Assembly: GCF_000006565.2 (NCBI RefSeq)
Contig: NC_031478.1
Span: 5,604,212 to 5,668,211 of the forward strand
Length of the DNA: 64,000 bases
Direction: 5' to 3'
From: Toxoplasma gondii ME49
Lineage: Eukaryota > Apicomplexa > Conoidasida > Eucoccidiorida > Sarcocystidae
Made by a program: the position numbers and the translations under genes. Every line of letters begins with the position of its first letter. Within the stretch, counting starts at the first letter, position 1. This document shows, piece by piece, positions 14,601-51,797 of the stretch. The notes under the pieces were generated by a model. The model was not told the DNA's origin, made no database searches, and saw only the letters and a program-made list of their open reading frames with translations.

Positions 14601-17600
14601 CGAGGGCGACGCCGTCAAGTCCCGAGATGCGGCCCGGACTAAGAAAAAGCGTGGCTTGGTCATTTTGGACGAGGACGATGATATGGGGACTGTGACGGCC
14701 GTTTCTTCTTCGTCCCCCGTCCCCATTGCCTCCTCAATGACTTCCTCCACTGCAGCCACGTCGCCCGCGGCTGAGGACGCGTCTTCTGGCGCAAGGCGGA
14801 GCAGTTCTTCAGAACATTCGGACGAACTGCGTCCGCCCCCCACCCCAGGTGAAGGCGCTTCTACTGCCGCCTCGGTGGTGAAAAGTGAAGATGCGGTGCC
14901 GAATGGGCTGCAGGCGTCTCCGAGGGGACTGTGTGCCTCCCCACGGGCCGGCGATGAGGCCTTGTCGACGACGTGCTGCACCAGCACCCCGTCAAGCACG
15001 AAAGACAACGGAAGAAGAAGCGGCCGAAGCAGCGATGGAACCCAACCGGCGTATCCCGTAAAGAAGGAAGAAGGCGAGCAAGTGGGCGGAGCAAAGGCGG
15101 AAGTGTCCAAGGAGGAGACGGAAGAGACCAAAGTGGAGGTGAAGGTCGAAACGCAGGAGCGAACAGAGGGCGCGGAACAACAGCGGAACGGAAAGGGAGA
15201 AGCAGTGGCGTTTGGAAATGAAAAACAAGAATTCGTCATCGACCGGTCACAACCTAAAGCCCAGCGACTCCTTGTCTTCACGCAGTTTCAACTCGTCCTG
15301 GATGAACTCGAAGCCTACTGCCACTATCGAGGCTGGAAATATCTAAGGTTCGTTCCGTGCTCAAACCCCAGATAATACTGTCTCTTCCGTAGGCAGTTTT
15401 GTGGGTGTTGGCCGGACGTGAAAGCACCTTTCACTTTTTTGCCCACGTGTACACCACTGGAAATCATTAGTTCGCAAGAGATAACTTCACGTCGCTTTTC
15501 AGCTGCCAAAGATGCGTGGATGTACCCAACCGTTTTGGACGGAGAGCTTGTGTCGCCAGTCAACTTCCGGCGGGTAAAATTCCTCACGAGTGCGCTCGCA
15601 CAGTGAGTTGGTAGCCAACTCTTCCTGACTTGTGCCAAATCTGCATGCGTTGTTGTGTTCCGAGCTGCCACGCGATCTCCACAGCTAACGCACGTAGCTC
15701 CAGAGGCCGCGGAGGAGCCTGTGCTTGCCCTTCTGTGCTGTCGTGTTTCACGGAAATGGTATCTTTTTTTTACTGTTCTCAGACTAGATGGGTCGACAAA
15801 CAAGTTCGTGCGCGAACTCGACATCCGCGACTTCAACTCCGAGAACAGCACGTACTTCGTCTACCTCATCAGCACCCGCGCAGGAGGTCTTGGGATCAAC
15901 CTGACGTCGGCCAACCACGTCGTCCTCTACGACCATGACTGGAACCCTTTCATCGATCTCCAAGCAATTGACAGGTGCGGGCGGAAGAAAGAGAAGGTGG
16001 AGGGAAAGCAGGTGGACCATTCGTGCGGGGCAGGCGAATGGGGAGACACTAGAGATTCTTTGCACGCAGAGCACAGCTGCGGTATTCCCTTGAGCACGCA
16101 TTGCCTTTCCGACGGTAAAGCTAGTTCTATTTCTTGTGCGTTAACCTGTTTGTTTGCTGCAGAGCTCATCGTATCGGGCAACAAAGGGCGGTCCACGTCT
16201 GGAGTCTCGTCAACGAGTGGACGGTCGAGGAACGCATGGCCTTCCGACGTGAACAGGTGTGTTTGGGGCAGCGGAATTCTGCGAGAGAGCACAAGGTAGC
16301 CAGAAATGATGTTCGCGCATCCGAGATGCCAGATGAAGCCAACGAAGAAAGCAAGGAAACAGGAAGAAGCAGGCATTTAGGTACGGGAGAGGCGGAGGAG
16401 ACGGCGGAGGCAGCGACATAAAGGAGAACGCAGGGATCGAAGGAAGAGAGGTAGCCTAGCGACTGAGTGAAGGCGGTAACGGAGACGAGAGGGCGCGCAG
16501 CCACAGAGAAACGAGAGAGGGGAGAGCCACTTGCCGCTGGTCTTTCTGCTGATCACTAACAACGTCTCAACAAGCAATCGTGAGAGTGTGACCATTTATT
16601 CGTTCTTCAGAAACTGCGTTTAGACAAACTTCTCGTTCAAAACCAGCAGGAAGAAGCCCTGGACGACGAAGACGAAGAACAGCAGAAAGGTGGAGACAAA
16701 ATCTCGACCGATGAGATTCGAAAGCTTATGCTGCACGGCCGCAAGGCTATTGTGGTGCGTCGACGTCCATATCTGTCACTGTTTCCAGAATACTTGCGTG
16801 AACTTCGTCGTGCATTCTGCGCTTCACTTTAAATTTCCAGAGGCTGTTCTCCTGTGGGCATCACTACAGTAGTAGTATGGTCGTAAGTGCGCATGTCGTT
16901 CCACTTTTGCGCATATTTACGTACCCCTTCCTCAGGCGTTCCTGTTTCTCTGCGTTTCTGTTTCCGCAATACCGTATCGTCGCTTCAACTGTTCCTTGCT
17001 ATTCTGCACGCTAGAGTCTTCAACTGCCCGTATCATCGTGTCGTTCGCTGACACCCCTCGAATGTGCGGGACACAGGATGCCGTCTACGCGTGCTGCTTT
17101 TGTAGTTCAGCCACTGTGGATTCGTCCTTTTCGTGTTTCCAGGAAGTGGCAGCAAAGAATCCTGTCAGTATTGCAGAGTGTTCTCTGGAGGAGTTGACGG
17201 ATCGTCAGCGTCTCCCTCTTCCCGAGCTTATGGATGGCGAGGGCAACGGGGACAGTGCTCTTCTGGACTCCAGTCGCATAACAACAAACGAAGATGGAGA
17301 CGACGATGAACTGGGTAGCCGCGATGGCGAAAATATGGTTGACATCGATGAGGTGATGAACGAAGAAGCAGAAGAGCAAAACAAACGGTTTCAGCTACTT
17401 GAGTCCGCAGATAGCGTCTCTCCCGATACAGGAAGTGTAGAGATGGGAGTGGCAGGCTGTGGAGGCTCTACAGGAGGCCCGCAAGACAGTCCAGAAGGCT
17501 CCAAGACCACCAGCGAAAATGAGACTGCTTTCGCAAGGGAGATCGAGAGAGCGAGGGAGGGAGAAGAAGGACGGACACCCACGGGTGACCAGGCTGTGCC

Positions 17601-29316: not shown

Positions 29317-32219
29317 CTGAGAGTCTCTGGAACTCTTTTTCTCTATCAACCAAAAGGTTGCAATACCGTGCTATTCGCGGTATTGACCTGTTATCCTGAG
29401 CATGAACCTGTCTCAAGTGCTTCTCGCCCTGAAGTAAGGGGAGATGAGCTCAGAGACGATACACCTTCACTCCTGTTTCAGGTGACCTTTGCGGTAATTC
29501 GGCAACCACTCGACAAACCCCTCCTCCAGCGTTGGTTCAGCACGTTGATACCCCAGTGCAGCAGAAAACGATACTAGAAGCGGTCTGGATGCTGTCAGAG
29601 TGATTATCCTTCTGCGGTGAAGAGACCAGGTTCTGCCAATGTAACCAAACCTGCAACGTCGCGTTTTGTTACAGACAGGCGGCAGACAAACTGAGATACC
29701 ATTTGGCGGTGACATTTTCCCCACATCCACCGCACGACAGTCAGGTTTGTCCAGGGCTTCGATTCGTCGGTCAACAAACGTATCTGTGTAAGGCAGCTGT
29801 GGGACATGCAGCCCGGTACGGTTCCAACTTTTCGGCGTGTGCTGGGATCAACTTTTGACGAAGCGATATCACACAGGCGAAACTGTAACACTCGTACGCA
29901 ACACCGTTTGTTTTTTCAGGGTGTAAGGTGCGAAAATTTACAGGACCGATTTATGCCCAATTATTTACCGAAGATAGGGTGCATTTGCCATCCTCGTTTT
30001 CGATTAATACCTACTACATCTGCATGTTGAAAATATGAGGAACGTTTAGCGAATTTGCCACACCTTTAAAGTAATTGTAATGGCCGACATGCGGCGAACA
30101 CACTTATTTGTGCGGTTCCTATGGGCGGTCTTCGAGCGGCTGCAAATTCACCTGGTGTTTTGTCTTTGGGTATTTCCTAAGCGGTTGAACCTTCACGGAG
30201 CCTCACAGTGTGTACTGCTCTCAGAAAGCTTCCGTGATACATAAAGGGACTGATGAACTCACTCAGTACACGACTGCGTCCACGGCTAATTGATTCTGTT
30301 TCGACAATCACGATTTATAAACAATTGCTTGCACCAACCAGTATCCGTTGTCGCAGACGGGAACCTCACATCTTCTGACGGAGCTAGACTTCATGTCTCC
30401 TCGACTGAAGCTTCTGGAATTTGGACTCAAACCCTTGCAGTACTGCATCTCTTTCCAGACACCTGCGTTTGCAGCTGAGTCCCTCACTATTGGCGAGGCA
30501 AGAGTGGGCTGGCAAAAAGTGTGTACTGGAGAGGGTGAGCTAGTTCGTTAGGGGATCTCCAAGAAGTGAAGGAATGATCCATACACGTGCACTTGTTTCA
30601 TTTCGACCTGACATGAGAGAGAAGAAGAACGGAGAAGCTGAATTGGAGATCGTTCTTATTAGTGTATTTCTCCGCAGTACTTCTTGGAAGATCCATAGCG
30701 CGTGTTAGTTGCTTTCTCCTACGCGGGGACCCTAGGTTTTAAGTCAACGTAGAGAATTTTGCAGCGGGCGTTTGTAGTAGTTTCGAGTCATCTCATGTTT
30801 CTCCCAAAAAAACATATCAGAGGCTGATGCACGAAGCTGCCACAAATTCAGAGGCACAAAAATCAGTGTTGGCAATGACACTGTGAATTCTCCGAAAAGA
30901 CTAAGCACACTGCACAGGCTTGCACACCGTAAACACCCGCACTGTCCCAACTTGCCATGCCACAGCTGCCTGCTATTTTAACAGATGCCACCATCGTCTC
31001 ATTCATTCAAAGGCGGTGTTGTAGCAGAGCAGACTGCATGAAATGCTGTTGCTGGAAGAATGCTCAAAGGGAACATTGTTTCAGACCCTGAGTCTCCAGC
31101 GGTTCACGATCAGTTAATCGAACAACTGAAATTTGTTATTTCACTGTCTGCCGCTTTCGTGAGTCACGCTGTGTCAAGAGCCACCCAGTAGTAGTGGAGA
31201 AACCGTTTGCTTGAGAAACCCTCTGACGCGAAGAGGCTCCATACATGTATCATTCTTGCACGAAGGATGCCTCAAGTCCTGTCACTCGGACCACGATGTT
31301 TACGGTTGAAATGCCGACTTCATCGGACGAAGCTGTTTGATATCGCATCCATTATCAGAATGGAGGCATAAATACCTGCACAAAGAGAATACACGGTTCA
31401 GGTTCACTGAGGCTCTTCGACAATTAGCGCCTGAGTCCGTTTTCGGCTATGCTACCTGACCGTCTTTTGAATCGAACCAGGTCGACGAGGCGAGGACATC
31501 CAGTGACAGCGCCTTTAGTTATGTGATATCGCTGACCGAATTTGTGTAAACATCTTACCATTTGCTACCATGAAACAACGGATATTCTGTGGTATCTGAC
31601 ACCCTATGCTTGGGGTGGTACCATTTATGCTGCGTTTCGTCTGTTGAAGCTTTGAACGGATTTTTTGGGCTCTGAAGAGGTTGCGAAGGTAGGGGCTCTC
31701 ACGAAGAAATGCTCATCTGCTGTTTTTCTTTTTCGTGTTCAGCCGTGCTACACCAAAGGTGCTGCAGAAAACTGCAGCTTCAGCAAAATAGAGTTCTGAC
31801 ACCGAAGTGCGTGTACACGACTATCGCTCGAGTAACGACGACACAGGTATTCTGCGTTGATTTCTGCGGACTGCATTGATGTAGTAGCACTTACTTGTGG
31901 AAAAGAGACTGACACTGGACATTCGTTCCCAAATGCCAGGTAGCTTTTTGAAGACATCCAACAAGGCTTTTCAAAAACCACCACGAGCGGGGGTCAGGGA
32001 CTCTTGAGGCTGCCGAGGCCTTTTGGAGGTTTTGGGCCGCGCCTCTTCTCCTGTGTGGAGCCTGAAGAGAGCCCTCTCACGTGTCTGATACCGGAAAGCC
32101 TCGGAACTTATGTTTGGTCAGTTCACATCAGTTTTCTCCACTTCATCTCGAGAAGCATTTGTGCGCCAGAATCCACTCATAGGAACCCGCTTCACATCTC
32201 AAGGTACTAATTGAGGAAA
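29317..32219. other. Divergent intergenic region, possible extra 5' exons of the coiled-coil gene
   Basis: The interval separates the leftmost known part of the - strand coiled-coil gene from the + strand Cys-repeat gene, so promoters of both should lie here. Two - strand segments look partly coding: about 29477-29575, with an EEGFVEWLPNY-like stretch, and about 30370-30470, with a charged helical stretch. Neither joins in phase to the known exons, so I only flag them. The rest shows nothing I can support. Confidence 0.35.
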
Positions 32220-33968
32220 ATGGCGCGCGTTTGTCTCGTGTCTCTCGCGTTCGTGACGCTTGCACTGTCGGCGGGTGCAAATCCGCCGCCGATGGTCATG
32301 ACAAAAAAGGAGGCGCCACCCCCAGTGGTCAAACAGGAGGTGTGCGAGACGGTTCCGTACCAAGTCCAGGCTACCTGCTACAAGGATGTGACAAAGAAGG
32401 AGGCATACTCGTGTCCAGAGACTTTGGAAAAGGAGGTTTGCAAGAACGTGCCCGTACAGGTCCCTGACACCTGCTACAAGCAGGTTTCCCAGCAGGTTGC
32501 ATACTCGTGCCCGCAAACACAGCACAAAACAGAGTGCTACGATGTGGCAAACACCTGCACTAAGACTGAGTATGTGATGGAGGCATACGAATGCGGAAAA
32601 GAAGCGTGCAAATCCGTGCCAGTCCAGGTGCCTAACACGTGCTACAAGACAGTCCAGGAGCAGCAGGCGTATTCGTGCCAGAAGAGCAAGGCCGAGCAAT
32701 TCTGCGCTGAGGTGCCTTACACTGTCGCCAAGACATGCTTCAAGGACGACGTGAAGTCGGTACCTTACACATGCTCCAAGACCGAGTACAAGCAACAGTG
32801 CAGGCAAGTACCCTTCCAAGTGGATAACACTTGCTACAAGACCGTCATGCAAGCCCAAGAGTATCCTTGCACAAAGACCGCCTTCGAGGACAGCTGCTCT
32901 GATGTCGCCGTGCAGGTCCCAGACACGTGCTACAAGCCTGTGCAGCAGCAGAAGCCGTACAAATGCAAGAAAACCCTCACAAAAACACAATGCACCAAGG
33001 TCCCCGTCGAGGTCCCAAGCACATGTAGCAAGACCGTTATGACGAAGGAGGCGTACGATTGCTCCAAAACAGAGTACAAGACCGAATGTACCGAGGAAGT
33101 TGCCCAGGTTCCCTGCGTGGGCAAGGAATGCAAGCTCCGACAGCTCAAGAAGCAGCGTGTCTGCCGCCAGGTTCCGTTCACAAGCAAGAACGTCTGCTAC
33201 AAGGAGGTACCAACTACACAGTCGTACAAATGTTCGAAGACTGAATACACTGAACAGTGCCAGGAGGTGCCGTACGAAGTGCCGGAAACCTGCTACGAGA
33301 CGATCACTGTTCAGCAACCGTACAAATGCTCCAAGACTGAATACAAGCAGCAATGCAAGAAGGTCCCTGTTGAAGTTCCACACACCTGCACCAAGCAAGT
33401 TCCAGTCAAGGAAGCTTATTCGTGCCCCAAAACAGAGTACAAGCAAGAATGCCAGAGTGTTCCCGTCCAGGTCCCGGATACATGCTACAAGCAAGAGGCC
33501 ATCAAAGTGCCATACAGCTGCCCCGAGACGAAGTATCAGTCCAAATGCGAAACGAAGATGGTCCCGTACGAGGATACCTGCTACAAGACTGTGCCCGTCA
33601 AGCAAGCCTACGCTTGCACCAAGACTGTTATGGAGCAGCAGTGTGCCTTTGTTTCCAAAACCTGCCAAAAGAAGGTACCAACTCAGGTGCAGTACTCTTG
33701 CCCGAAGAAGGAGTGCAAGCAGGTTGCCTTCCAGGTTGATAAGACCTGCTACAAGGCCGTGCCAACTCAGGAAGCATACAAGTGCTCCAAGACTGTGTTT
33801 GAGAACCAGTGTACCACCCAGTCGTACACGGTTCCCAAGACTTGCTATAAGGATCACGTAAAACAGCAGGCATATCCGTGCATGGAAACCAAGTACAGGA
33901 CCCAGTGCAAAACGAAGAAGGCAGTGGCACCCCCTCCTCCCGTTATGTTGTCTAAGAAGGGCATGTAA
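32220..33968 (+). CDS. Secreted protein of about fifteen 3-Cys repeats, 582 aa
   Basis: A single-exon gene. The ATG at 32220 sits in a strong context (GGAAAATGGCG) and opens a signal peptide (hydrophobic residues about 5-19, ending in SAGA). The rest is a chain of about fifteen units of roughly 32 residues. The pattern is a Cys, then VPxxVPxTCYK, then a Tyr-x-Cys-x-KTE step, giving three cysteines per unit. Two units carry short inserts (CVGKECK and KKECK). Lys, Gln, Val, Pro and Tyr dominate the spacers, and the C-terminus is short and Pro/Lys-rich. No transmembrane or GPI signal is visible, so it should be secreted. Tyr- and Cys-rich repeats would suit a disulfide- and dityrosine-crosslinked wall, for example of the oocyst, but this is inference. 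It is not the 6-Cys repeat of known oocyst wall proteins, and I do not recognise a named gene. Confidence 0.85.
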   Translation: MARVCLVSLAFVTLALSAGANPPPMVMTKKEAPPPVVKQEVCETVPYQVQATCYKDVTKKEAYSCPETLEKEVCKNVPVQVPDTCYKQVSQQVAYSCPQTQHKTECYDVANTCTKTEYVMEAYECGKEACKSVPVQVPNTCYKTVQEQQAYSCQKSKAEQFCAEVPYTVAKTCFKDDVKSVPYTCSKTEYKQQCRQVPFQVDNTCYKTVMQAQEYPCTKTAFEDSCSDVAVQVPDTCYKPVQQQKPYKCKKTLTKTQCTKVPVEVPSTCSKTVMTKEAYDCSKTEYKTECTEEVAQVPCVGKECKLRQLKKQRVCRQVPFTSKNVCYKEVPTTQSYKCSKTEYTEQCQEVPYEVPETCYETITVQQPYKCSKTEYKQQCKKVPVEVPHTCTKQVPVKEAYSCPKTEYKQECQSVPVQVPDTCYKQEAIKVPYSCPETKYQSKCETKMVPYEDTCYKTVPVKQAYACTKTVMEQQCAFVSKTCQKKVPTQVQYSCPKKECKQVAFQVDKTCYKAVPTQEAYKCSKTVFENQCTTQSYTVPKTCYKDHVKQQAYPCMETKYRTQCKTKKAVAPPPPVMLSKKGM

Positions 33969-34012
33969 CCGATTCCTTGATTATTTGACCTGTGCACAAG
34001 AAGGGCATGTAA
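33954..34012. repeat. 15-bp repeat that duplicates the stop-codon region
   Basis: AAGAAGGGCATGTAA, the last five codons of the Cys-repeat gene, occurs at 33954-33968 and again exactly at 33998-34012. The second copy follows the stop codon. It looks like a remnant of a short tandem duplication at the gene end. Confidence 0.7.
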
Positions 34013-36235: not shown

Positions 36236-39200
36236 ATGGCGAACGCGGAGAAACTCGTAAAACTTCACGGCCTGTGGTTCCGCTCTTTGTGGAAGTGGGC
36301 CGAGAAGATACCACATGAAGACGCTGTCATTTGGCTTGACGAGAATGTGAGACAGCACTGGAATTACGCGGACCGGCCGATGTCTGGGCTCCAATAGAAG
36401 ACGCTGCTGGAGCGAGTTGTACATACGTAGGGAGCGGTGCTCACAACTGGCGTGACAGTTCTTAGCCTTTGTTTGGAGAGAGCGGATGCTGAAGCATCGA
36501 ATTCTGGACTCCTACCAGTGTAGCCACACGAGTGTAATAGATTGCCTGACAAATATTATTGTCTTGCTGAATACAATGTTGCCTTCCTCCTGTTCCATAG
36601 GGTTCAAAAGCCGCATCATTAACGTATCAAAAACTGCGACGGGAGGCCCTGATAATCGCCACCTGCTTGCGGCAAGTCCATTGTCAGCCAGGAGATCGAG
36701 CAATTCTGTAAGAGCAGAGGTGGAGTACGACAAGAAGGCTTGCTAGACTGCTCAGCACACGAACACATTCCAATGCAAAACCACCATCAAAGACCGTTTT
36801 TCTAATAACAAACAGAAGATGCAGCCCAAGAATGCAGTGCACGCTACATGATGGGTTGCAAGCCGTACTCAGACGCAAAGACACGCAAAAGTTAGGAGCT
36901 ATTTTCTGTCACCCTCAGGTGCTCGGTCTCCTTAGAAATGTGAGCTTTCAATTTGCTAAATGGAGACGTTCGCCGATGAACCACCAGAACCACTGTAGCA
37001 CTAGTCTCACAGATCACTTTCGGCTCGCTCAGTGTCTGTTGTTTGTCGTTGTTTGAAGCCGTCTAGGATTATCCAGCGAAAATTTCGTTCGTTACATTGC
37101 GTACCACTGGCTTGTCACCGTCCGTGATTTGTCGTTGCATTTTGCTCTCCTGGAGCATTTAATGGTCCACGATTTTTGCAGATGTTATCCTCCGTCGGTC
37201 AGCTTCGTGCCCGCCTTCCTTGGTTGTCAAATATGTGGGCTTACTGCCGTGCCGGTCTACCCACCTGGAAGTAATGACAGAGACTCGGACAGCATCCAAA
37301 GAATAGTGGCCATGGTGAAGACTACAAGGCCGTCGGTTGTGCTGAGTTCATCTCCACTCAGGTAATGATTCGTGCTATACCGTATAGAGAATACGATATG
37401 CCTCTTTCCTCTACTTCTGCGACAGTTTTACTTCAAAACGATTCGGATGCCAGCCGTTCATTGTTCGTTGCTGCAAACTGTGGAAGAATTCATGAACAAG
37501 GAGAGGATTAAAAAGTTGGCGGTCATGTTGACCTGCAGGTGCCCCCTAGTCGTTCGTAGTGCTAAGAAGATGCTTTGCTATCTCTTCAAACACGGCTGCT
37601 TCACACCAGCTATCCTATATGATTTCCAGTCGCAACAACAATATACGCGTGTCTTCCTTTCAAATATAAACCAGGTATTTTCTGAAAGAAGTATTTCCGG
37701 GTGCTGCCGCCCGTTGCGTGAGCGATATACGGTGGATATTCACTGACGAGCTGCCCGACCACGTCGAAGCCGGATCAGCGTTCGAGTTGGACTCGTTGGA
37801 TATCAAATCCGAGACGCCAGCTTTCATCCAGTTCTCGTCAGGAAGCACCGGAAACCCCAAGGGGTGCGTGGTAACGCACATGGCCCTACTGCACAACATC
37901 CATCTGAACTGGCGGATGTGTGGGGCTTTCCACCCGGGCACCGAAGAGAGCTTATACGATCTACCAGTTGAATCATACGCTGAATTCACCGAAAAATACC
38001 AGAAGCATCTCGTGGCCACCTGGGGTCACCGGCTACGTTCCTTTTCGTGGTTGCCGGTGACACATGATATGGGGTGAGTGCGAATGTTCTGCAAGGATCA
38101 CTCACGCTTGAAGGAATTTTTGACTCATTCAGGGGGCGAGAGAAACAGGTCCGCTGCCCGCTGCCCCCCTCTGTTAGGGGAGAATCACATTGACAGTTCA
38201 ATGACTAACGGCTTCATCAGTTAAGGGGGACTTCTTGCACTGACGGTAGTCTATGGCACCTTAAGGAACGCGGGACTGTCTACACACTGTGTGCTTTGTT
38301 GTTTGTATTCCAGACGGGGGAATTCAGCCAGCAGGAGTTTTGCATCCAGTTCCTTGATACAAACCACACCTGAGTTGTGTCATCTTCAGGCTCGTCGGAA
38401 TGTTGTGCGTCCCGTTGTTTTTCGGATGCACTGCCTTTTTCATGTCTCCTATCGACTTCGTGAGAGCACCCCATAGCTGGCTAGGGGGGATGAGCAAGTT
38501 CGGCTGTTCCTTCACAGCTGCGCCAGATTTCGCGTACGCTCTAGCAGCTAGAAAAGTTCCTGATGATCTGGTGTTGGAATTGAATTTTGAGAAAATTCTG
38601 GCATGCGTGAACGGTGCCGAACCTATTAGACCAGCAACAATTGAAGCATTTCTGCAGGTACGGTGCAGCATGAGCCGTCGCACACCTGTTCTTTCTCAAC
38701 ACCGTCTATCGCAATATTTGCTGCATGCGACACTCACGCCCAGATGGCAATGGGGTAGTAGCGTCCCAAAGGGAGACACTTTGGCGTCTCAGGAAGCATG
38801 TTTGCTCCACTCTCATGGTTGGTCCATGGTTTTTCCAGCAGCTGCTCTGACCGGCGGAGGCTGGTTGCTGGTTACATTCAAGCCAGAGAAACAGTGTCTG
38901 TAAAACAGTTGCACTCTGTTGGTCTGCATGTCGTCAGGCTCTGTACTACCACGTAACCCTCCCAGTGATATTTGGGGATGATAGGTGGACAAGTGAACGC
39001 CCACAGCAAAGTGAATAAAAGATATCTTCGACGGAGTCAGGCAGACACATATGCGGATGCACCTTTTGATCCCCCTGTTTTATCGTGTCTACAGAAGTTC
39101 GCTCCCGCTGGATTCCAGCCATGGATGATGAGTCCGGCATATGGCCTTGCCGAACACACAGTAGGGGTTACAGGACGTGGTTCCGAAGGGAGGAAGCCTA

Positions 39201-42200
39201 TGAGTCCGAAGATCATTGAAGTCAACAACGAAAAGGTGGCACAGGGGGTAAGTCGCGCGCAAAAGGGGCCGGATTTTACGTAGGCAGAATGCTTAGTTTG
39301 TGGGTCCGCGAGCTACACATTTTGGAGACGCTTGGCATGAAGGAAGGAATTTAAAGTGTCGCCTGGGGTGCATCCTGCTTGGAAGCTAACGCTGAACCGC
39401 CCTCACCATCGCCGGTGTTTCCTTTATCGGTAGCAATGAGCAGGGATAGACTGTCGCTTTTCGGACTGTTATTGTTGGTATGAATCTGCTGTTGGATGGT
39501 GGTGATGCTTTGATCTCTTCTTCGTTTCTTCCCAGGATACGGTAGAACTTTTCAAGCGTAGCGGAAAGCAAGAGAACGAAATGCGCACCAAGCTCATTGT
39601 CGGATGTGGAATTCCTCACGAAGACGTTATTGGTAAGTCCACATGATCCTATCTCTCTGTAAGCACTTTTGCCACTTTCAAGAGCACCGCATCTACCAGC
39701 CGACTTCTTGTCTGCTCCGTGCTTCGCTGCTAGATGGCAACACACGCATCTGCCAGTTGAGAGAACGATCGGCGGATGGACACCGCGCGCTGCATTTATA
39801 ACAGCATACATCCACTGGTGTTTCTATAGGATATCTGAGGAAGGAACTTTTCTATATCTTTCAGTGATTCCAGCTCGAGACCGTGACAGCAACGCCTAGT
39901 GTGGCTATTCTATCATAGAGACTGATCGCATAGTTGCGACTGATTAAAGCGCCAGACCAAACCACATATTTCCCCAGCAGCACCAAGAGCAGTCAGTGAG
40001 GCTTTACTGTGAATCTGCTTTTATAATACATTGCAAGTGGTTTTTTCTGTTTCTCCAAGTGCTGTGAGACTCTTGTTTTCCCTGGGCGCAGTGAAGATTG
40101 TAGACCCAAGGTTGTTGCAAGAGCTGTCGGAGTGGCAAGTTGGCGAGGTATGGGTCAGTTCTCCCAGCGCGGCTTCAGGCTACTTTGGTTCTCCAGTGGA
40201 GACGGCGTCAACGTTCAACCTGCACCTCAACACAGCTGATGGAGCCACCCGTGGAGACAGGAGTTTTCTTCGTACCGGAGACCTTGGCTTTCTCGGTGAC
40301 GGCGAGCTCTTCATTACTGGTCGTCTCAAAGATGTTGTCATTCTTCGAGGTTGTAATTACTACCCTCAGGATATCGAGGAAGCTGTCGAACGATGCGATT
40401 CAGTACGCAAGGGAGGAGTTATGGCTTTTTCTATCAGTACCACCGATGACGCTGAAGGGTTGGGAGTGGCGGCGGAAATTCAGAGTAAGACTTCTCTCAA
40501 CCCGTTCGCTGGCCTAGCACTAGCCGTGTATCCGGGCATAGCTCCCATTACATTTGACGATAGAATCCTACGAATGTTGGCGAACCGTGAGTCTCATGCA
40601 ATCGGAGACGAAAAGATTTACAAAATCAGCGGCTCTCGACATCGTCTGTCCGGCTGACGTCAGCAGTCCACGTACACTAATGGATTAGGAATACATAAAT
40701 GCTGCATCACGCAAAGAACACTGCATACAGTGGCGGATACGCTTACCTGTTGAGTGTGACTGTAATTTGTGTATGAAACAGAGGGTTCGGAGAAACCAGC
40801 GAAGTTGAAGCTGATATACGCTGACATCGTTCGGACTGTGAACAAGGTTCTTCACCTGCCCCTACAACGACTTTGGCTTCTCAGGGCTGGTTCCTTGCCC
40901 AAAACAACAAGTGGCAAACCTAGACGATCAGAAGCGAGAAGGCGGCTGCTTCAGGCAGAGCGCTGTGATGACATTTTATATTCATACACACGAAATCTCA
41001 GCCATTCCGGACACCTGCCCTTCCGGCCAGGCACCTTTGAACTCGATATGGAACAAAAGCAAGAAGACTCAGCGAGCACATCCAAAAGTGAGGTTAACAA
41101 GTCACTCGTTGAGTCACTTTCCACCGCTAAGGGTGCTAGGCACACCGATGATGGTTTTATATTCACGAATGGACAACAGAATTTGCATGAGGCCAAAAAG
41201 GACCAACATGGAACGTCAGACTCTACCTTGGCCGAACCGGTGTCCAATGCGATCTTGGATCCGATAACCAGGGTCACAGACGCACTACTTGTCACTGCAG
41301 ATGGCACGTCAGTACACAAGGATGAAGAGGAACTGTCGCTGGTGGCAGAATGTTTCGCTTGTGTGACCGGCGTCGAGAAGTCTTGCTTGCGGCCGGATAC
41401 GCCTTTCCTCTCACTCGGGTTAGACTCGCTCACGGCAGTTGAGCTGGCTAACGAAATTCAGCGAAGGATGAAACAGCCTGTAGAGCCTTTTGAGCTCTTC
41501 GAATTTGCTGACCTCCGCAGCCTGGCCCTATACCTAAGGAATAAGAAACTCGATCACGGAAAAGATGCACGAGGTCGACAAACAAAGTCCAGCCCCGAAC
41601 GCTCACTAGGAATTGTTCAAGTACAGCGGCCGAGCGTGTTTGTCACAGGTGTGGCGTGTGCGCTGCCGGGCTCCTGCCAGACGCCTGACAAGCTATGGGA
41701 GATCCTAGACGCGGGGATTGACTGCGTTGGGCCAATTCCACCGAACAGGTGAGTTGCACATCACAGCACTCCCCTTAGGTCAAACTCAATCGATCTGCTT
41801 CAATTTTCCGTTTTCAGTCTCCTGGTGCGGCTGTAGGTCGTCACTGTCGGCGTTGCAGCGCACAACAACATACCCTGCCTCCGTGGTTTGTTCCTTCGAA
41901 GGAAGCTGGCGTACAGAACGACTGACAAATAGCTTCTGCACCTGATAGGCATCATCGCTGAAACAAAGAGCAGTTTCTACGACTTTCTGCACCGAAAGAG
42001 GCCGAGATGTTTGAGCCACATGAGGTGTTATTCAAGCAGCTGGATTCTGGAGCGTGTAATATCTGTCACAGATATCCCTCCGGAAAGAAGTGATAGTACT
42101 CACCTTGTCTCAAAGTACATAACAAGTTGAGTTGAAACGGCGATCGTAATGAAAAGATGGAAGTGGCGACGTACATGCCTATTTTTTAGCGATGAACTGG

Positions 42201-45200
42201 TGCGTATTGCTACGTCAGGAACTTCTGCGCTTCGCAGAACTTCGCAGTCATCGGGGAGCCCCGAACTGCCAATGCTTCATTTTGCGTCACAGAGGGAGGC
42301 TTCCTGGACGATGTGGACCTCTTCGATAATTCCTCTTTCGGAATACCTGACGCCGAGGTGATCATTTTGCTGATGTCCGAATCGGATATTTTCGTAGCTA
42401 CAAGCTACCCTATCAGCAAAAGGGGCTGACTCTCGGGATATATATTCACCGGATCGGAAAAACAATGGGAAGTATGTTCTGTAGGTCTACTCTTGAATGC
42501 CTTCAGCTCTTTACGTCGCCTATATACTCGGAGGAAATTCCCTTTGTAGTTTGCCATGGAAAACTTGCGACGCGATGACATGAAAAAAGACAAGAGCCGC
42601 GGGAAACCTCCCGGTGAATGGAACAACCTCTTATACGTGCATCAATGTTTGCAGGCTATGACGATGGATCCGCAGCAACGGCTACTGTTGATGAAGGCGG
42701 TAGAGGCACTCCATGCAGCTGGAATGGCTACGATTGATTCAAGATCTGCCCCCATTGCGACATTCGTTGGTTGCTGCTCCACTGATTGGTGAGAATCGAC
42801 GTAGTTCCTTCTGTCCAAAGTAGACGCAGTCTCCTCGAATGCCAACTAATGCAGCATGAATCCCATTGAGTGATAATACAAAAGTAACATGTGGACCTTG
42901 CAGCAGTGAAGTCACGCTGTTGTGGGGAACGAGGCCGTGAAATACGGCGAACATGCGTTGTGTCTTTGTCAGGCAGAGAATGAACCTTGGCGAACAAATT
43001 CAGAGTTTCTCTGCCACAAGTCACTCGGCCAGCATGCTCTCCAACCGTCTGTCGTACACTCTCGGATTGACGGGTGCATCGATCACAGTGGATACCGCCT
43101 GCTCGTCGTCGTTGACCGCCTTGCATTGTGCCATGCAAGAGCTACAGCACCGGCATGTGCCATGCCACACAGCAGTTGTGGCCACTGTGAACTTGCTGCT
43201 GACCACCGACGTGACGCTGGCATTTGCGCGAGCAGGTTTTCTGTCTCCAACGTACAGATGCAAGACTTTCGACGACGCTGCTGATGGTTTCGTTCGAAGC
43301 GAAGGTGTCGTCGTCTTTGTGTTGCAAACTGATGTTTCCGAAACGCCCACACCCAGTTTCAAAAACCAACAAGAAGACAACGAAGGTGGTCAAGGCGAAT
43401 GTGGGACCAGGATCCCTGCTTCTGGTTACCTTTGCCGCATACTAGCTTCGACGGTCGTCCATGGAGGTAAAACAGGCAGTGTCACAGCACCGTCAGGATC
43501 TTCCCAAGAACTCCTATACAAACAGACCTTCGCCTGCGCCCAGGTCCCTCCAAGGGCGGTGGACTTAGTCGAGACCCATGGGACAGGCACGCGATTGGGA
43601 GATCCGATTGAAATCAGCGCTTTATGCAACAGTTTTGCTCCCGACATGGAAACGCGAAAACACCGACTGGTGCTGGGAGCTTTAAAGACCAACCTTGGCC
43701 ACTTGGAAGGAGCCTCTGGCCTCGCTGGGCTGTTGAAATCAGTACTTTGCCTTAATCGACAGCGAGTCCCACCAAATTTGCACCTTAGAAAGCTCAACCG
43801 TTTCATTGACTTCAGGAGTTTGCCGGTGTTACTGCCTACCAAGACAGTACCGTTGCCAGCTTCGTCGTCGGAGACAAAGGAGGCTGTTGCGCTTGTGACT
43901 TCTTTGGGTTTTGGTGGAACATATGCGCAGGTGGCTGTTCAGGTGCCGTCTACCACCGGTAATGAGATGTTGCTCCGAAACCAAGAACCGGTGCAGTGGA
44001 ACAAAAAATGTTTCGACGTTGGCAAACTAGTTTCACAAAGCAATTCTTTTCAATCCGCAGTTAGCCACAATGACACGAAAGGGCCATGCTTTTGGGAAGT
44101 GGGTTGGGAGTTTCTGCTCGAGTTTGACAGCATTACGCTGACGTTGCCTACTCTTCCTGAACAGGCTCCTCCCGCGAAGTGGCTCGTCCTCACTTCCCCC
44201 AAGGCACAGCAGAGCTTCCGCAAGTTCTCTGTGAATATTTTTCTGCCTGGTATCCGAATGACATTTGCTTGCCTGGAAGAACTGAAGGCACCCGAGCATT
44301 TGGAGGCAATTCTGAAAGCCGAGACCTGGACAGCAATCGTCTCTACGTATACCACAGAGACTGGAAGTTGTATGACAGACTCGAGTGACCTCATTGGTAG
44401 AACGCTTCAGATCCTCCAAACGTACGGTCAAATGGCCAGTCAATCTGCTGTTTTGCCACGGATTCTCTTTTTGACTCAGGGATGTTTTCAAGTTGGAGCC
44501 GCTGCCTCTCTCTTGAGGGCTTCTCCGTATAATGCTGGTATTATTGGATTTGTTCGTGCTTGTCGCTTGGAGATTGAAAGCCTCTCAGGCCGGAAAGCGC
44601 CTATCTATTTAATAGACTTCGCGGCAAACGGCACACTAACAGAAACGCTTAGCGCAGTATCGAAGCTGCTGGGTATGATTGACATTCGCAACGTTGACGA
44701 GACAGAGTTTGCAATCTGTGGAAAGCGCGTTTTTGCTCCTCGTCTGCTCCCCCTTCATCTTGGCCTTGAAGAAATCCTCCCTGCTTACGACCATTACATG
44801 GATCTAACCAAGAAGGCTGATGAAAGTCCCGCTGGCACTGCCAAATTCCCACGTCTCGTTGAGCCAGCCAACAAGGCTTGCCGCGTACGCCTCTTAGCTC
44901 TATGCCTTGATGAGATATTCCCTATAGAAGCAATATCACCCGCAAGTAAGGCTTTTGAACTAGGGGAGTCGCGTCCATGTACTTTACCCTATGGTTACCG
45001 CAACCGCCGCCAAAAAGCCTTCTTGTACCAAATGGAACGAGCGTTCGTATAGTCACAGACGGATACGTTATGAATTACCTCTCTGTTGGCTGAATCGCAA
45101 CAAAGCAAATGTCTATTTTAATCAGAAACGACTTGGACAGTCCACGTGTGTATTTATTGAAGTAATTTTAAAGCTTGCTGTCAGATTTATCTTGCCTGCA

Positions 45201-48200
45201 TGCTTCAAAAAGAAGATGAACGCAGCACCACCTTCAACAGCACGTGAAAATCGTCCCTTGTATTCGGCACTGTCAGACTTGAAGGGTTTAGCTTTCTTAT
45301 GTTGTGCTCCAGGTCCAGATAATGCTTCAAGCCTCTGCGGCTGCAGTGGGATCCTACTTGAGCACGGTGCGGACAGCCAACACCTCACGGTTGGGAACGT
45401 CGTATGTGGAATCATGCCCCGGCCCCACTGCGAGATTGCCGACATTCCAGGTATTCTATTGCACCCCTCTCCACCGTCATTTTCATGTGAACTAGCGGCT
45501 TCCCTCCCTCCACAGCTGGCACTACTGCTCTGGGCCCTGAATCAGGCGCCACCTTTGGTGACGCCTCCGGCGAAGCGGGTGTCACGAGTCCTTATTGTCG
45601 GAGCAGGTTGCGGAGTGGGGCTGGTAGCAGCCACCCACTTTCAGACTCTGGGCTTGAAGACATTTGCAGTGGTTTGTACAGAGGAGCAAGTCGAGGCTTT
45701 GGTGCATTACCAATTTCCACATGCGGCCATATGGTGTTATGATCGACCCGATCTGAGAAGTGCTTTGAGGCGGGAACTCGGGTATTCAAGTATTGATATG
45801 GTTGTCTGGGCACTGAAGCAAGAAATCGACTCCAGCAACAATCATCTGCTGAACTTGCTCAAGCATGGTGGATCTTTCGTGGATCTCGTTGCTTGTCATC
45901 CAGAGTCAAGATTGGGTTGGCGGCTTGATGTTAAATACGTACACTGCACATTGGACCTTGCCGCGCGTCCTTACCATGCAAAAGAATTTTCCAAGAATCT
46001 TGCACTCTCTTGTGAGATTCTTCGACAGAAAACTGCTTCTCAAAGGCAGCAAATTATGCATGTCTTCTTCGATCACGCACATCGTCTGGGTCAACATTGC
46101 TCGTTGGCGTCTGTCCAGATGACCGAGGCAGCGACCCCACAAAACGTGACCAGCCCAGCGGACCTCAGCAAGCAAAACGTATCTTTCAGACCAGGTGTCA
46201 ATGCGGTGGAATTCGTTTCCGGTTACTCTCATGCGGGGAGTGTTGTTTGTAGCCTGCCGAGCCCTATTTTTTTCAACAAGGCATCCTCAAGCAACGGAAA
46301 CTGTGAGTCTAATGCCTCGACTGCCTCCTCGAGTGCAGCTCTCGGGACCGAAGCATCGTCTAACGTCCGAACAGGAACCGTGCTAATCTTTGACTGCGGA
46401 TCGGGCAACACATGGCAACATCTTAGACAGTGGCTTTCAGATGAAGGTGCTTCGCACATTGTTGTTGTTCACGCGTGTGCTGAAGAAGGCGCTGATACAC
46501 TAGGGGTGAAAACTCTTCATCCCTCCCGTGTGAATGGCGGCCAAGGATGTTCGCAGACTCTGATTAAGGAGGTGAAATGCCGGCCACATCACCCTGAAGA
46601 AGTTGTCGAGTTGTTTAAGTTGTTGAAAGAAGGTCTGCATTTCCCTCTCGTTCGAGGCATTTTCTATATTCTGGGAGAGAAGCTTGACAGCCTTTTAGCG
46701 AACCAAACAACTAGCTCGGTACATGACATGATGAAGACGGCCTCAGGGGCGTGGTCGATCCATCATGCTTTGGGCCAGCTCGGCATGGAGGCTGATTTAG
46801 ATTTTTTTATTTTTTTCTCCAGCATTTCAGCCCTCTTTGGCAGCATCAGCCAATCAATATCAGCTGCAGTTCATGCGTCTCTAGACGCACTGGCGTACTA
46901 CAGGCGGCATCTTGGCCTTGCTGCTACGAGCATTCAGTGGGCGCCTTGGGCCGATGGATCAAGCGCGACTTCACCACAAATCGTTCGTCATTGGCTAGAA
47001 AAAGGTGGCGTTTCTAGTGTTCGAAATCCTCTAGCTGCTGTGAGTGCGATTCTGAAGAATCACACTGCCATCGGGGCTGTCGTTGCCTGCTTCCACGCTG
47101 ATCCCACCATCATGCACGAAATGGGAGAGACCGACCAAGAATGTACTTTTCTTTCCTCGGGGCCAGCGGCAAATACAAGGGATTCAACCTCTGGCAATGT
47201 TAAAGTGAGGACAAATCCGGTCAAATCCCGAGTTTTCCAAAATGTGTCCCCATCAACGGACACTTGTGGGGAAAACCACAAGGACGAACTTTTGGTGATA
47301 CTGACGCAGTTGGTTAGGAGGGAGGTCATAGAGATTGCCTCTTGCTACGTTTTCTTCGAGGGCAACAACTTATCTACCGACGAGTCACTTGTCGACCTTG
47401 GTCTTGATTCTCTCTCAGCTGTGGAGCTTCGGCACACGCTGCAGCAGCGATTCTGCGTTAACATAGAACCGACCTTCCTTCAGGCGAATGCAACAATTGA
47501 TAGCATTTCGGCGTTGCTTGTAACACATGTGGCTACCTCTCTGACGGGCGCTCTCCCCGTATTGCCACTGTCTTGCCCTGGTCTTGCAAGTGCGGTAGAT
47601 GACTGCGCGCTTGTCAGCTTGGCGCTCAGACTTCCCGGGCGCTGTGACTCCCTGGACGCTTTTTGGGCGTCTCTACAAAGCGATTCCGGCTATTGCAGGC
47701 CGGGGGCTTCGGAGGCCTGTGATCAATGCTTCATGCATCGTGCGGGAAGTGGCGAGCTTCCTGCGGAGTCGCAATCTATTGGCACCAATCTCGATGCCAG
47801 GAAAGGCTTCTGTTGGCTGAGCAACCGTGACGCATTCGACAGTCATTTCTTCGGCATATCTTTCACAGAAGCTTTGGCCACAGACCCCTGTCACAGATTG
47901 CTTTTGGAGGCAACGTACGAAGCTTTGTGCAAACTGAACACAGAACAGCAGTCGGGCACGTCCGGTACGCCAATTGCTGTTTTCGCTACATCTTCATCTA
48001 CCCAAATGCGAGCCTCTCTCCCATCGTACACTAAACCAGCGAGTTCTCAAAATACGCAGGACAATAACGGATGCTTAGCCGCGAGTTTTCTGTCCTACCA
48101 TCTGAATCTGACTGGCTTGGCCGTGCCCATTGATGGCAGTGACAGCGCGTCACTGATTGCACTTGATCTCGGAAGGGAACACCTACGAGGGACGGATTCC

Positions 48201-51200
48201 GTGTGTCAAGCAGTTGTCGTCGCAGCAGGGTCACTGCTCCCCATTTGCTCGCATGGTTGGCCGTCTGCATGTACCAGTCCCACAATACGTCGTTTTCGAG
48301 GCCGTGACGACTATGCGTTCCCTGACAGAGAAACATATGCTGTGCCTCGGGGCGAAGGCATCGTTTCCGTTGTTTTGCAGCGTTTGTCCGTAGCTCGAGA
48401 AAATGGGAACAGTCCAATGGCCATATTGAAGGGTATTTCTTTAATTCGTATGGGAAGAGGAGAGAGACCTATTCCATCACAGTGGAGAACGGCAGACGTA
48501 AAGCTACGACGCAAGACGATCGTGGAGGCTCTCAAGATGAGCAGAGTTGAGCCAAGGACTGTGGCTGTATTGGAAACCGACGGGTTGACAGGATCTCAGG
48601 CGGAAGATGCCTACACGGTGGAGGCAATGGCTGACATCTTCGGTCCTAGACATCTCGCCGAGTCGTGTTCTCCCCTTGTTATCGGAAACGCCAGTTTGCA
48701 TATAGGACAAGCAAGGGAAGCCTCTGGCCTTGCGACTCTAGCCAAATTAGTCTTGATGTTGGAGCGTGGATACGCTCCACCTATTCCACGTCTTCGACGT
48801 CTGCATCCCGATGTCAAAAGAGGAATCCTGCCCTCTGGATTTGTGATGTTCCCATGCAAGAAGATGGACCTTCTCGCTTTTCGTCAGCACCCGGATCACG
48901 TATACGGACCGAACGAGAAAAGGGACCAGAAAGAAGGCCGTCCTTTAATTGGATGTGTCAGCTCTCTCGGATCCGACAAAACATCAGGTTGCTTCATTGT
49001 GGAATCTTCTCCCAGACGACACGGGCGCACATCGGACACAAGGGTCTCCTTGGAGCGTGCGGTGCCGTTAGCCGGTACGAAGGACGCTTGCTCCCACAAT
49101 TATCTTCACGTACGGTCAACCGATGGTTCTGAAAGCGAAATACGAGGAGACGACCGGGCGGTCTGGCTATTTTGCGACGACTTATGGGGACTGCAGTCAG
49201 TGGGACGAGGTCTCTACTGTTCGGACCCCGCCTTTGCCGCACTTTTGGAGCAAGCTGAACGTGTGTTAGGAAACCGTATCCCACAGCCTTTGAGCTGCCT
49301 GCTATACCCATCCACAACTGCAGAGTTTCAAAAGGCTGAGGACGCTTTAGCATTCCCACGCATAGCAGCGTTTGTGCTCTTCAGCCTTCAGTGGGCGCTC
49401 GCAACCTGCCTGCGGCACCAAGAAGGGGAGCCTACTGCAGTCATGGGGCTTGGAGTTGGTGAGATTGCTGCAGCTGCTGTAGCCGGTATTCTGTCTCTTG
49501 AAGATGCAGTTGAACTCTTAGAGCTTCTTTCTTCTGAAACTCGTACCTGTGACAATCGCAACAAACCCATGCCAGGAGGAAACGTGAACTCGGGCGGCCT
49601 TTTCGACAGAGGCAACAGCGGAACTGGTGGATGTGGTGTGGCGCAAGATTGCAAAAGTCCCTGGGTGCTGTGTGGGTTAAATAAGACCCCCACGAGTGAA
49701 TCGGCCGCCCTTGAATTTTCGGTTCTCGAGTCTAGGCGAGGTTCATCGTCGCGGAAAAGCTCAGAAACACCGACCTCTAACACCACCCCTCATAATAGAG
49801 ACGTTTTCCAAGAGCGTTTTTCAAGGAAACCACGGCGTGCAACTTGTCCAAGTCCGATCATTCGGCATGCGTGGGAAAAGGTCGCTCATGGTAACCCTGA
49901 AAATGACGAAGAAGCCGAACTGGAGTGTCCCTCCAGCCAATCACGGCGTGCAAATTGTCCAAGCCCGGCCATTCAGCATGCGTGCGAAGAGACCGCTCAT
50001 GGGAACCATGCAAATGACGGAGAAGCGGATCTCCTGATGGATTTATTTAGATTTCGCCCAGAGCCGAGCGAACCGCTGGGACAAGTTACTGCGCGAATCG
50101 CGTTGCGTAACGCTACATGCCTATTTATTTCTACTGTCTCCGGTCGGTTAGCAACGGATACTCTAATAAGAGCAGCCGAATATTGGGATCCTCTCGTACC
50201 GAAAACGCAGCGAGTTCACCGTGCAGTGGAAACCGCCGTACAGGTGGCGAAAACCGCAAAACTAGTCTGCATTGGTTGCTCTGCCCAAGATGGCGTACAT
50301 CTGTCGGTCGGCTTGCCCTCGGTCCATCCCATTAGTCCCTCACCATTACGAATATTTTGTTTCACAGGAAGCTCCCCCTCACCACAGCTTCTTGCCCCCT
50401 GTGAATCAGCAAGCGGGTCCTCCCCTCGAGTTGCTGTTGTCGAGCATCATGGAGCTGACTCAAATTTGGGGGGAGGAGCACCGTGGTGGAAGCATTTATT
50501 GTTCCGTCTCCCTCAACTCGAGGGGTTCCCTAGTGGTTGCTCTGCAAGCACGCGATTACTTGCAGATCGCCTTGTTGCTGACGTGCCAACTCCTGACAAC
50601 CATATGATTAACAACCCGCAGACGGCGGCGGTACAGGGGGCAGGAGAGACTCTTGGAACATTGCGTGAAGGTTCATCTGGAGAGGGAGAAGATGGTGAGA
50701 AAGGCTACAGGAGCGAATCTGTAAACACTCAGCACCCCGTTTACAAAGTCTACAGACGCTGCAGCGAACCGGAACTGCACGAGTCTGAGCTGTCACTCTT
50801 ATGTTCCGATACGGTGTGCCAACCGAGCCTGGAAAAAACAGTGGAGCTGTTCATTGGTACAGGACTCGAGCAGCAAGGCAAACTCTCGACCGTTTCCAGC
50901 AGTTGGCTGGTGTTTTCTGATATTGTTGCACCTTCGCCGATTTCGTTGTATTCTACTCTCGCTTTCCAAAATGAAGATGGGGAGCAGCGTTTTTGCACGT
51001 TGAACGTAGCCTCCCAAGTGGCGACGGTCTACGCAGAAAAAGTCAAAACACAGGTTTGCTCAATAATAATAGAGTGCAAACGAGGCTTCAAGCCTCCACG
51101 TGAGATTGCCAGATGCTACTTCGTCAAAAATCAAACAGCGGTGGGAAAACACGAACCCGCTGTCTCATCTCTTTCTCGGATCCGGTGGCTGCCAGCTACA

Positions 51201-51797
51201 AAACTTCCAGAAGGGTGGCTTCGCACGCGCCGTCCTCATGTTTGGCCGTGCAAGATTAAAGTCACCAAAGCCGCCTGCCCTTTGCCTACGAGAAGGGTCG
51301 ATCTTCAAGAGATTTACTGGGGGAAACGGCACATTCTGTGTCGTTTTCGAATGCCACGGAACCCCCCTAGAGATGGTGTTGAGAAAAGTACACAACTAAT
51401 CGCCATATTGGCTCGGCTGGTGACAGTAAGTGTTGGTGTAGCTGCAACATGTGTCCTCCATGAGACTGAGACCTCAGGACGCTATTCACACAGCCACCCA
51501 GGCCCCCAGGTAGAAGACGACCAGAAGACTCATATGGATGCTTTATGGGTTTGCCCATATGTCCCTTTCAGTGAATGCTGGTGTGTGATACGACATCGCA
51601 GAAATGGAAGCAGCATCAAGGAAGGCAAAGGGAGAGACTGGGAGACGTGCGACGTAGAGATATTCAGTGAGAACGGCACCGCGGTAGCTGTGGTCCTCGG
51701 CTTTGGGATTCAAAGCCACGCTCTAAGCATGCGCATGATGGGAGGAAGAGGGAACGATGGAGACAGCTCAGTTAGTACGACTGTTTGTGTTGCATAA
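36236..51797 (+). CDS. Multimodular FAAL-loaded polyketide/fatty-acid synthase with degenerate second module, 3825 aa
   Basis: A type I synthase expected to activate a fatty acid as acyl-AMP and load it on a carrier domain. Exons: 36236-36346, 36601-36707, 37182-37361, 37675-38073, 38390-38657, 39095-39247, 39536-39632, 40092-40484, 40782-41748, 42219-42357, 42655-42788, 42973-44945, 45241-51797; total 3826 codons. Domains: fatty acyl-AMP ligase about 1-630 (FSSGSTGNPKG at 186-196, HDMG, YGLAEHT, RTGDLGF, Lys615); ACP Ser785; ketosynthase 853-1306 (Cys1026, His1185, His1226 intact); KR structural half about 1385-1590; enoylreductase about 1641-1925 (GAGCGVG); ketoreductase about 2017-2247 (Tyr replaced by Ser2181, glycine motif lost); ACP Ser2364; second ketosynthase about 2427-2897 (Asp2608, Asp2754, Gln2797 at catalytic sites); acyltransferase about 2946-3326 (GLGVG for GHSxG); DH-like end about 3527-3807. 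No thioesterase or reductase release domain follows. A ligase loading unit is also known from Cryptosporidium FAS1 and PKS1. Confidence 0.88.
49831..50034 (+). repeat. In-frame 111-bp tandem duplication inside the acyltransferase-like domain
   Basis: A 111-base (37-codon) unit starting CACGGCGTGCAA at 49831 is repeated from 49942, the second copy being slightly shorter. Both encode a segment of the type CPSP-I-HA-E-AHGN followed by acidic residues, and they have diverged at several codons. It lies in a linker inserted between the two halves of the degenerate acyltransferase. The frame is kept. Confidence 0.85.

What the first reader, a model, noticed from the sequence alone, without database searches (positions are those of the whole stretch)
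47599..49010. Second ketosynthase has lost all three catalytic residues but stays open
Read directly: the domain keeps the KS fold landmarks (FFGIS, DPCHRLLLEATYEAL, RGEG, ASGLATLAKL), yet the active-site Cys is Asp2608, the HGTGT His is Asp2754 and the NxGH His is Gln2797. The first KS in the same protein keeps all three, so the loss is module-specific. Three independent losses in a frame without stops suggest a retained non-catalytic role (dimer scaffold, docking or gatekeeping) rather than random decay.
Basis: partly seen in the sequence, partly recalled or inferred. Interest (0 to 1): 0.9.

Follow-up and report, generated by a model that had tools for sequence, protein, structure and literature searches.

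The report
Catalytically dead module in Toxoplasma synthase
A giant polyketide-type enzyme of the parasite Toxoplasma carries a second condensing domain whose catalytic residues are gone, and three relatives carry the same kind of dead domain, so it probably serves as structure rather than chemistry, although slow decay is not ruled out.

Summary
The second ketosynthase (KS2, 47595-48968) has Asp for the active-site Cys, Asp for the HGTGT His and Gln for the NxGH His; the KTNxGH Lys is Ser too. KS1 keeps Cys-His-His.

Orthologues in Hammondia, Neospora and Besnoitia show it is old: Cys column D/D/D/E, HGTGT column D in 4 of 4, but the third column is Q/Q/H/R, so Gln is not a shared trait. Nor is the loss confined to KS2: the KR before it (Tyr to Ser) and the AT after it (GHSxG to GLGxG) are altered in 4 of 4.

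KS2 evolves faster than KS1 (Toxoplasma-Besnoitia identity 49% against 65%) but slower than linkers. It has lost 67 of 122 family-conserved positions. No stops are seen where 23-39 would be expected, with caveats. A structural pseudo-module is the best reading (0.6); vestigial decay is a serious rival. dN/dS could not be computed. New variant of a known kind: algal KS0 domains and the CalA3 release module are the nearest precedents.

The parts
36601..40960 (+). acyl-AMP ligase (FAAL-like) exons; SSGSTGNPKG at 37835, TGDLG at 40274, TTSGK Lys at 40916; motifs judged by eye
   Evidence: tblastn with Besnoitia P0006 (the first piece, 36601-36708, is weak, E 3e-4); positions; PF00501 at 183 bits in P0006. 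Motif meaning recalled.
41336..41542 (+). ACP1, phosphopantetheine Ser at 41426
   Evidence: Pfam PP-binding in P0003
41624..43918 (+). KS1 in four exon pieces; Cys 43100, His 43577, Lys 43685, His 43700 intact
44946..45312 (+). intron (GTAAGG..CTCCAG), my reading; joins the two long frames without an early stop; translated in the VEG model P0003, the residues absent from Besnoitia P0006
46398..46955 (+). KR domain, catalytic Tyr replaced by Ser (46860-46862), coenzyme motif degraded
   Evidence: Pfam KR 79.8 bits; aligned to AmphB KR; Ser in 4 of 4 species
47292..47519 (+). ACP2, phosphopantetheine Ser at 47409, intact
   Evidence: Pfam PP-binding 39 bits
47595..48968 (+). KS2, the dead ketosynthase
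48141..48143 (+). Asp (GAC) at the nucleophile Cys column; D/D/D/E in Toxoplasma/Hammondia/Neospora/Besnoitia
48579..48581 (+). Asp (GAC) at the HGTGT His column; D in 4 of 4
48693..48695 (+). Ser at the KTNxGH Lys column; S/S/A/G
   Evidence: place derived from the coordinates
48708..48710 (+). Gln (CAA) at the NxGH His column; Q/Q/H/R
49149..50280 (+). AT-like domain with a long insert; GHSxG replaced by GLGVG (Ser to Gly at 49452-49454)
   Evidence: Pfam Acyl_transf_1 31-37 bits, cut-off 32.7, none listed for Besnoitia P0006; aligned to EryAI AT; GLG[V/V/I/L]G in 4 of 4
50826..51794 (+). C-terminal region of unassigned fold, end of the protein; no ACP or thioesterase match after KS2
   Evidence: no Pfam match, no credible PDB match; model unusable, pLDDT 30; the Besnoitia model does not align over its last part

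Best explanation
The gene encodes a megasynthase, acyl-AMP ligase - ACP1 - KS1 - (psiKR, ER-like, KR) - ACP2 - KS2 - AT-like - C-terminal region. Shown by sequence: the ligase, ACP1, KS1 and ACP2 keep their motifs; KS2, the KR before it and the AT after it lack catalytic residues in the four species compared. Inferred: the ligase loads a fatty acid on ACP1, KS1 can extend it once onto ACP2 with an extender supplied in trans (no AT is detected beside KS1), and the terminal KS2-AT-C-terminal stretch is a pseudo-module kept as a structural part: it extends the homodimer axis through the KS fold and holds ACP2 or a partner enzyme that takes the chain. KS2 itself should be unable to form the acyl-thioester or do decarboxylative condensation.
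For: Cys and HGTGT His columns changed in 4 of 4 species. From the replacements seen across the dead module, 469 to Neospora and 673 to Besnoitia, 23-27 and 33-39 nonsense changes would be expected (kappa 4 to 1); the Toxoplasma frame has none and the returned models show none. KS2 core differs less than linkers: Hammondia 27/417 against 50/354, Neospora 115/418 against 158/317, Besnoitia 209/411 against 214/297; Fisher p 0.00045, 6e-10, 1e-8. Hammondia substitutions in KS2 are more conservative than neutral single-base changes (mean BLOSUM62 0.04 against -0.57, p=0.02). For 56 of the 67 lost positions no species of the four has the consensus residue, so these losses probably predate their split. 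Precedent: CalA3, an ACP-less release module whose AT, DH and KR are inactive and judged structure-stabilising (PMC10006239, passages and section 8).
Against: KS2 evolves faster than KS1 (209/411 against 156/443 differences to Besnoitia, the only one of the three relatives with KS1 in its model; p=5e-6) and keeps 55 of 122 family-conserved positions against 83 for KS1 and 71-86% of covered positions in 7 other Toxoplasma KS domains, as relaxed constraint would give. For 11 of the 67 lost positions another of the four species still has the consensus residue, the NxGH His of Neospora among them. Lost columns are no better conserved among the four than other KS2 columns (23/67 against 127/364, p=1), so there is no sign of a specific new function at the old active site. 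The conservative-substitution test is one of 11 domain tests, uncorrected, and not significant for the whole module (p=0.18 at kappa 2). The stop test rests on annotated models, which are chosen to be open, and the Besnoitia model does not align over the C-terminal end (172 columns aligned, 167 gapped). No expression, product or partner is known here.
Confidence: 0.6

Rival explanations
1. Vestigial module under relaxed selection: KS2-AT-C-terminus is a leftover of an ancestral extension module, drifting while the frame stays open only because truncation would destabilise the protein.
For: Faster evolution than KS1 and broad loss of family positions; third catalytic position varies Q/Q/H/R; neighbouring KR and AT also altered.
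Against: No stops in the Toxoplasma frame; 1, 0 and 5 gap events in the KS2 core against Hammondia, Neospora and Besnoitia; core constrained relative to linkers in three comparisons.
Confidence: 0.28
2. Repurposed binding pocket: the acidic pair at the Cys and His columns marks a new ligand- or ACP-binding site used for gatekeeping or hand-off.
For: Acidic residue at the Cys column and Asp at the HGTGT column in 4 of 4 species.
Against: Columns that lost the consensus are not conserved above background; the third residue varies; no confident local model.
Confidence: 0.1
3. Artefact: assembly error, wrong frame or strain-specific mutation.
For: None found.
Against: The VEG strain and three other species also lack the Cys and the HGTGT His.
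Confidence: 0.02

Closest known systems
CalA3 release module of calcimycin synthase (PMC10006239; passages and section 8 seen)
   Same: PKS module with no ACP, in chain release, in which several domains have lost catalytic residues (AT Ser to Gly included) and are judged structural.
   Different: CalA3 keeps a Cys-His-His KS that does the chemistry, and its DH is solved; here the KS itself is dead and the C-terminus is unassigned.
Terminal KS0 domains of chlorophyte PKSs (PMC4661987; section 8 seen)
   Same: Terminal KS with altered HGTGT His (to Ser) in a eukaryotic type I PKS, expected to be non-elongating.
   Different: There the Cys is shifted by two positions rather than replaced by an acidic residue, and a hydrolase-like domain follows.
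KSQ loading domains and the chain length factor of type II PKSs (both recalled; KSQ entries of GfsA and PikA1 appear among the matches)
   Same: KS fold with the nucleophile Cys replaced.
   Different: As recalled, KSQ keeps the histidines and decarboxylates, and the chain length factor is a partner of a live KS; here the change is Asp/Asp in a terminal domain.
CpFAS1 of Cryptosporidium (PMC2995488; passages seen)
   Same: Acyl-[ACP] ligase plus ACP loading unit followed by PKS-like modules in an apicomplexan.
   Different: Its three internal modules are described as complete and functional; here KR, KS2 and AT have lost catalytic residues.

Membership tests
type I PKS/FAS ketosynthase (homology) | KS sequence and fold | tested here: met
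type I PKS/FAS ketosynthase (active enzyme) | Cys-His-His and the KTNxGH Lys | tested here: not met
   D, D, Q and S
KS0, non-elongating KS (definition with Cys kept for transacylation is recalled) | HGTGT His lost | tested here: met
   Asp in 4 of 4 species
KS0, non-elongating KS (definition with Cys kept for transacylation is recalled) | nucleophile Cys retained | tested here: not met
   D/D/D/E
KSQ loading decarboxylase (definition recalled) | Cys to Gln with histidines kept, in the loading module | tested here: not met
   Asp at the Cys column, HGTGT His lost, domain near the C-terminal end
CalA3-type ACP-less release module | no ACP in the module, inactive AT | tested here: met
   only PP-binding match in P0001 lies before KS2, frame ends at 51797; GLGVG
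CalA3-type ACP-less release module | active KS that releases the chain | tested here: not met
chain-length-factor-like partner | heterodimer with an active KS | not testable with these tools
   needs a complex structure or biochemistry

The most novel reading that the evidence does not exclude
KS2-AT is a non-catalytic receiver: a degenerate condensing didomain that binds the acyl chain on ACP2 and presents it to a separate partner enzyme, so that a megasynthase performs one condensation and then hands off through a dead module. That would be a distinct release architecture of tissue-cyst coccidia.
Probability: 0.15. Interest if true: 0.75.

Novelty: new variant of a known kind. Interest (0 to 1): 0.5.

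Why it matters
A 2023 review notes that few studies have characterised apicomplexan assembly-line PKSs or identified their metabolites (PMC10394414, passages seen). This one seems reduced to a ligase, two carriers and a single condensing site, with an inactive tail shared by four species. If the tail is structural it is a eukaryotic counterpart of bacterial modules kept for shape, and it warns against predicting polyketide products from domain counts: Pfam finds two ketosynthases here, of which at most one should extend.

Tried and rejected
dN/dS: not possible, since the collections within reach held no coding DNA of Hammondia, Neospora or Besnoitia that I could fetch; replaced by the stop, conservatism and rate tests.

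Wider orthologue search: three protein searches. One search listed Toxoplasma, Hammondia, Neospora and Besnoitia; one search listed Besnoitia and Toxoplasma only (the other two models are shorter than its length window); one search listed none of the four, its length window lying below them.

C-terminal fold: I thought of a degenerate dehydratase by eye, but Pfam and PDB gave nothing credible and the model failed, so it stays unassigned. The loss of the AT His (IGCS for IGPH) is by eye only; the alignment stops before it. ER-like stretch: no Pfam match, activity not judged.

Literature: 10 searches; I saw listings, 13 of 13, 25 of 25, 25 of 166, 15 of 84, 15 of 20, 3 of 3, 3 of 3, 2 of 2, 10 of 23 and 12 of 14 papers, and recognised none on this gene by title or start of abstract. 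The Toxoplasma PKS paper PMC9301873 is not held and was seen only as a reference. An AMP-binding-protein name search led to two Toxoplasma locus tags that the passages do not tie to this gene. Passages of PMC7464705, PMC10993292 and PMC7138838 added nothing on KS2.

Paralogue count: 10 type I KS domains on C1 and C8, from 11 fetched stretches, some overlapping; exon pieces were joined into domains by position. Cys intact in 9 of 10 (one is Ser), HGTGT His in 10 of 10, NxGH His in 10 of 10, Lys in 9 of 10. Left out: pieces on the small contigs C948, C1308, C1607 and C1666, and the KS-like stretch C1:444666-447021, which gave no match to KS1. Three fetched C8 stretches hold N. One search used 7 of the 10. 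The bacterial KS yardstick is 150 domains, one per protein, of 442 found in 270 proteins.

Full report
What is there. The window is C12:5604212-5668211 of a 65.28 Mb genome and is Toxoplasma gondii: the frame 44964-51797 differs from the VEG strain protein P0003 at 10 residues of P0001 61-2277, two of them in what I read as an intron. With exons found by tblastn against the Besnoitia orthologue P0006 the gene reads acyl-AMP ligase, ACP1, KS1, a psiKR/ER-like/KR block, ACP2, KS2, an AT-like domain and a C-terminal region, then stop. The intron at 44946-45312 has canonical ends and leaves the frame open; the VEG model translates it.

The observation. Alignment of KS2 with solved ketosynthases places Asp at the Cys column, Asp at the HGTGT His and Gln at the NxGH His; the KTNxGH Lys is Ser. 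KS1 keeps Cys, His, Lys and His. Among 10 other type I KS domains on two contigs of the same genome, both histidines are intact in 10 of 10 and the Cys in 9 of 10, the exception being Ser. KS pieces on small contigs were not examined. KS2 is therefore exceptional among the domains looked at.

Orthologues. A search of 5.8 billion proteins returned Hammondia (90% identity), Neospora (64%) and Besnoitia (40%, 88% covered) proteins over this region. Their columns read D/D/D/E for Cys, D/D/D/D for the first His and Q/Q/H/R for the second, in the order Toxoplasma, Hammondia, Neospora, Besnoitia. The loss of Cys and first His most simply predates the split of these four (inference).

Not only KS2. 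The KR aligns to AmphB with Tyr replaced by Ser and a degraded coenzyme motif; Ser in 4 of 4. The AT aligns to EryAI with GHSxG changed to GLGVG; GLGxG in 4 of 4. Pfam sees the AT weakly in Toxoplasma (31-37 bits, cut-off 32.7) and lists none in Besnoitia. Both ACPs keep the attachment Ser. The ligase motifs are intact by eye. The Pfam scans show no AT between KS1 and the KR block, so an extender would have to come in trans (inference).

Constraint. Identity Toxoplasma-Besnoitia: KS1 65%, ACP2 59%, AT N-terminal half 56%, KR 53%, KS2 core 49%, post-AT 30%, KS2-AT linker 8%. KS2 differs less than linkers in all three comparisons and more than KS1 in the one available. Given the observed replacements, 23-27 (Neospora) and 33-39 (Besnoitia) nonsense changes would be expected in the dead module; the Toxoplasma frame has none and the models of the others show none. 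Those models are annotated, hence chosen to be open, and the Besnoitia one does not align over the C-terminal end (172 columns aligned, 167 gapped), so this evidence is weaker than the numbers look. Hammondia replacements are conservative in KS2 (p=0.02) and the C-terminus (p=0.04), two of 11 domain tests, uncorrected, and not in the whole module (p=0.18). KS2 keeps 55 of 122 positions conserved in 150 bacterial KS domains; KS1 keeps 83; seven Toxoplasma paralogues keep 71-86% of covered positions. Of the 67 lost positions, 56 lack the consensus in all four species and 11 have it in at least one; the 67 are conserved among the four at the background rate (23/67 against 127/364, p=1). This pattern fits a fold that is kept while the active site is free, with no mark of a new active site, and it does not exclude slow decay.

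Mechanism. Shown: KS2 lacks the residues for transacylation and condensation. Inferred: it adds a second KS-type dimer contact and a platform at the end of the chain. CalA3 shows that an ACP-less module can keep inactive AT, DH and KR as structure (PMC10006239, passages and section 8), and some algal PKSs end in KS0 domains suggested to act in release or transfer (PMC4661987, section 8).

Novelty. Inactive KS domains are known. A terminal KS-AT whose nucleophile, histidine and AT serine are all gone, shared by four coccidians downstream of one live KS, I did not see in the listings of the ten literature searches made; the library lacks most subscription papers and the Toxoplasma PKS paper PMC9301873.

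Noticed in passing
G000:C8:1700056 (locus L034): A ketosynthase of the second Toxoplasma synthase cluster has Ser in place of the active-site Cys with both histidines intact.
   Followed up: no
44946-45312: The VEG strain gene model translates what looks like a canonical, frame-preserving intron; the extra residues are absent from Besnoitia.
   Followed up: yes
32199-33980: Both strands are open for about 590 codons; the + strand reads as a Cys-rich repeat protein with a signal-like start and no Pfam match.
   Followed up: partly
43919-47000: The block after KS1 has a KR with catalytic Tyr to Ser in 4 of 4 species and an ER-like stretch without Pfam match.
   Followed up: partly
11593-15372: SNF2 helicase domain with PHD fingers in one open frame.
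   Followed up: no
G000:C8:1717743 (locus L031): The last KS of that cluster has His in place of the KTNxGH Lys and HGTA for HGTG.
   Followed up: no
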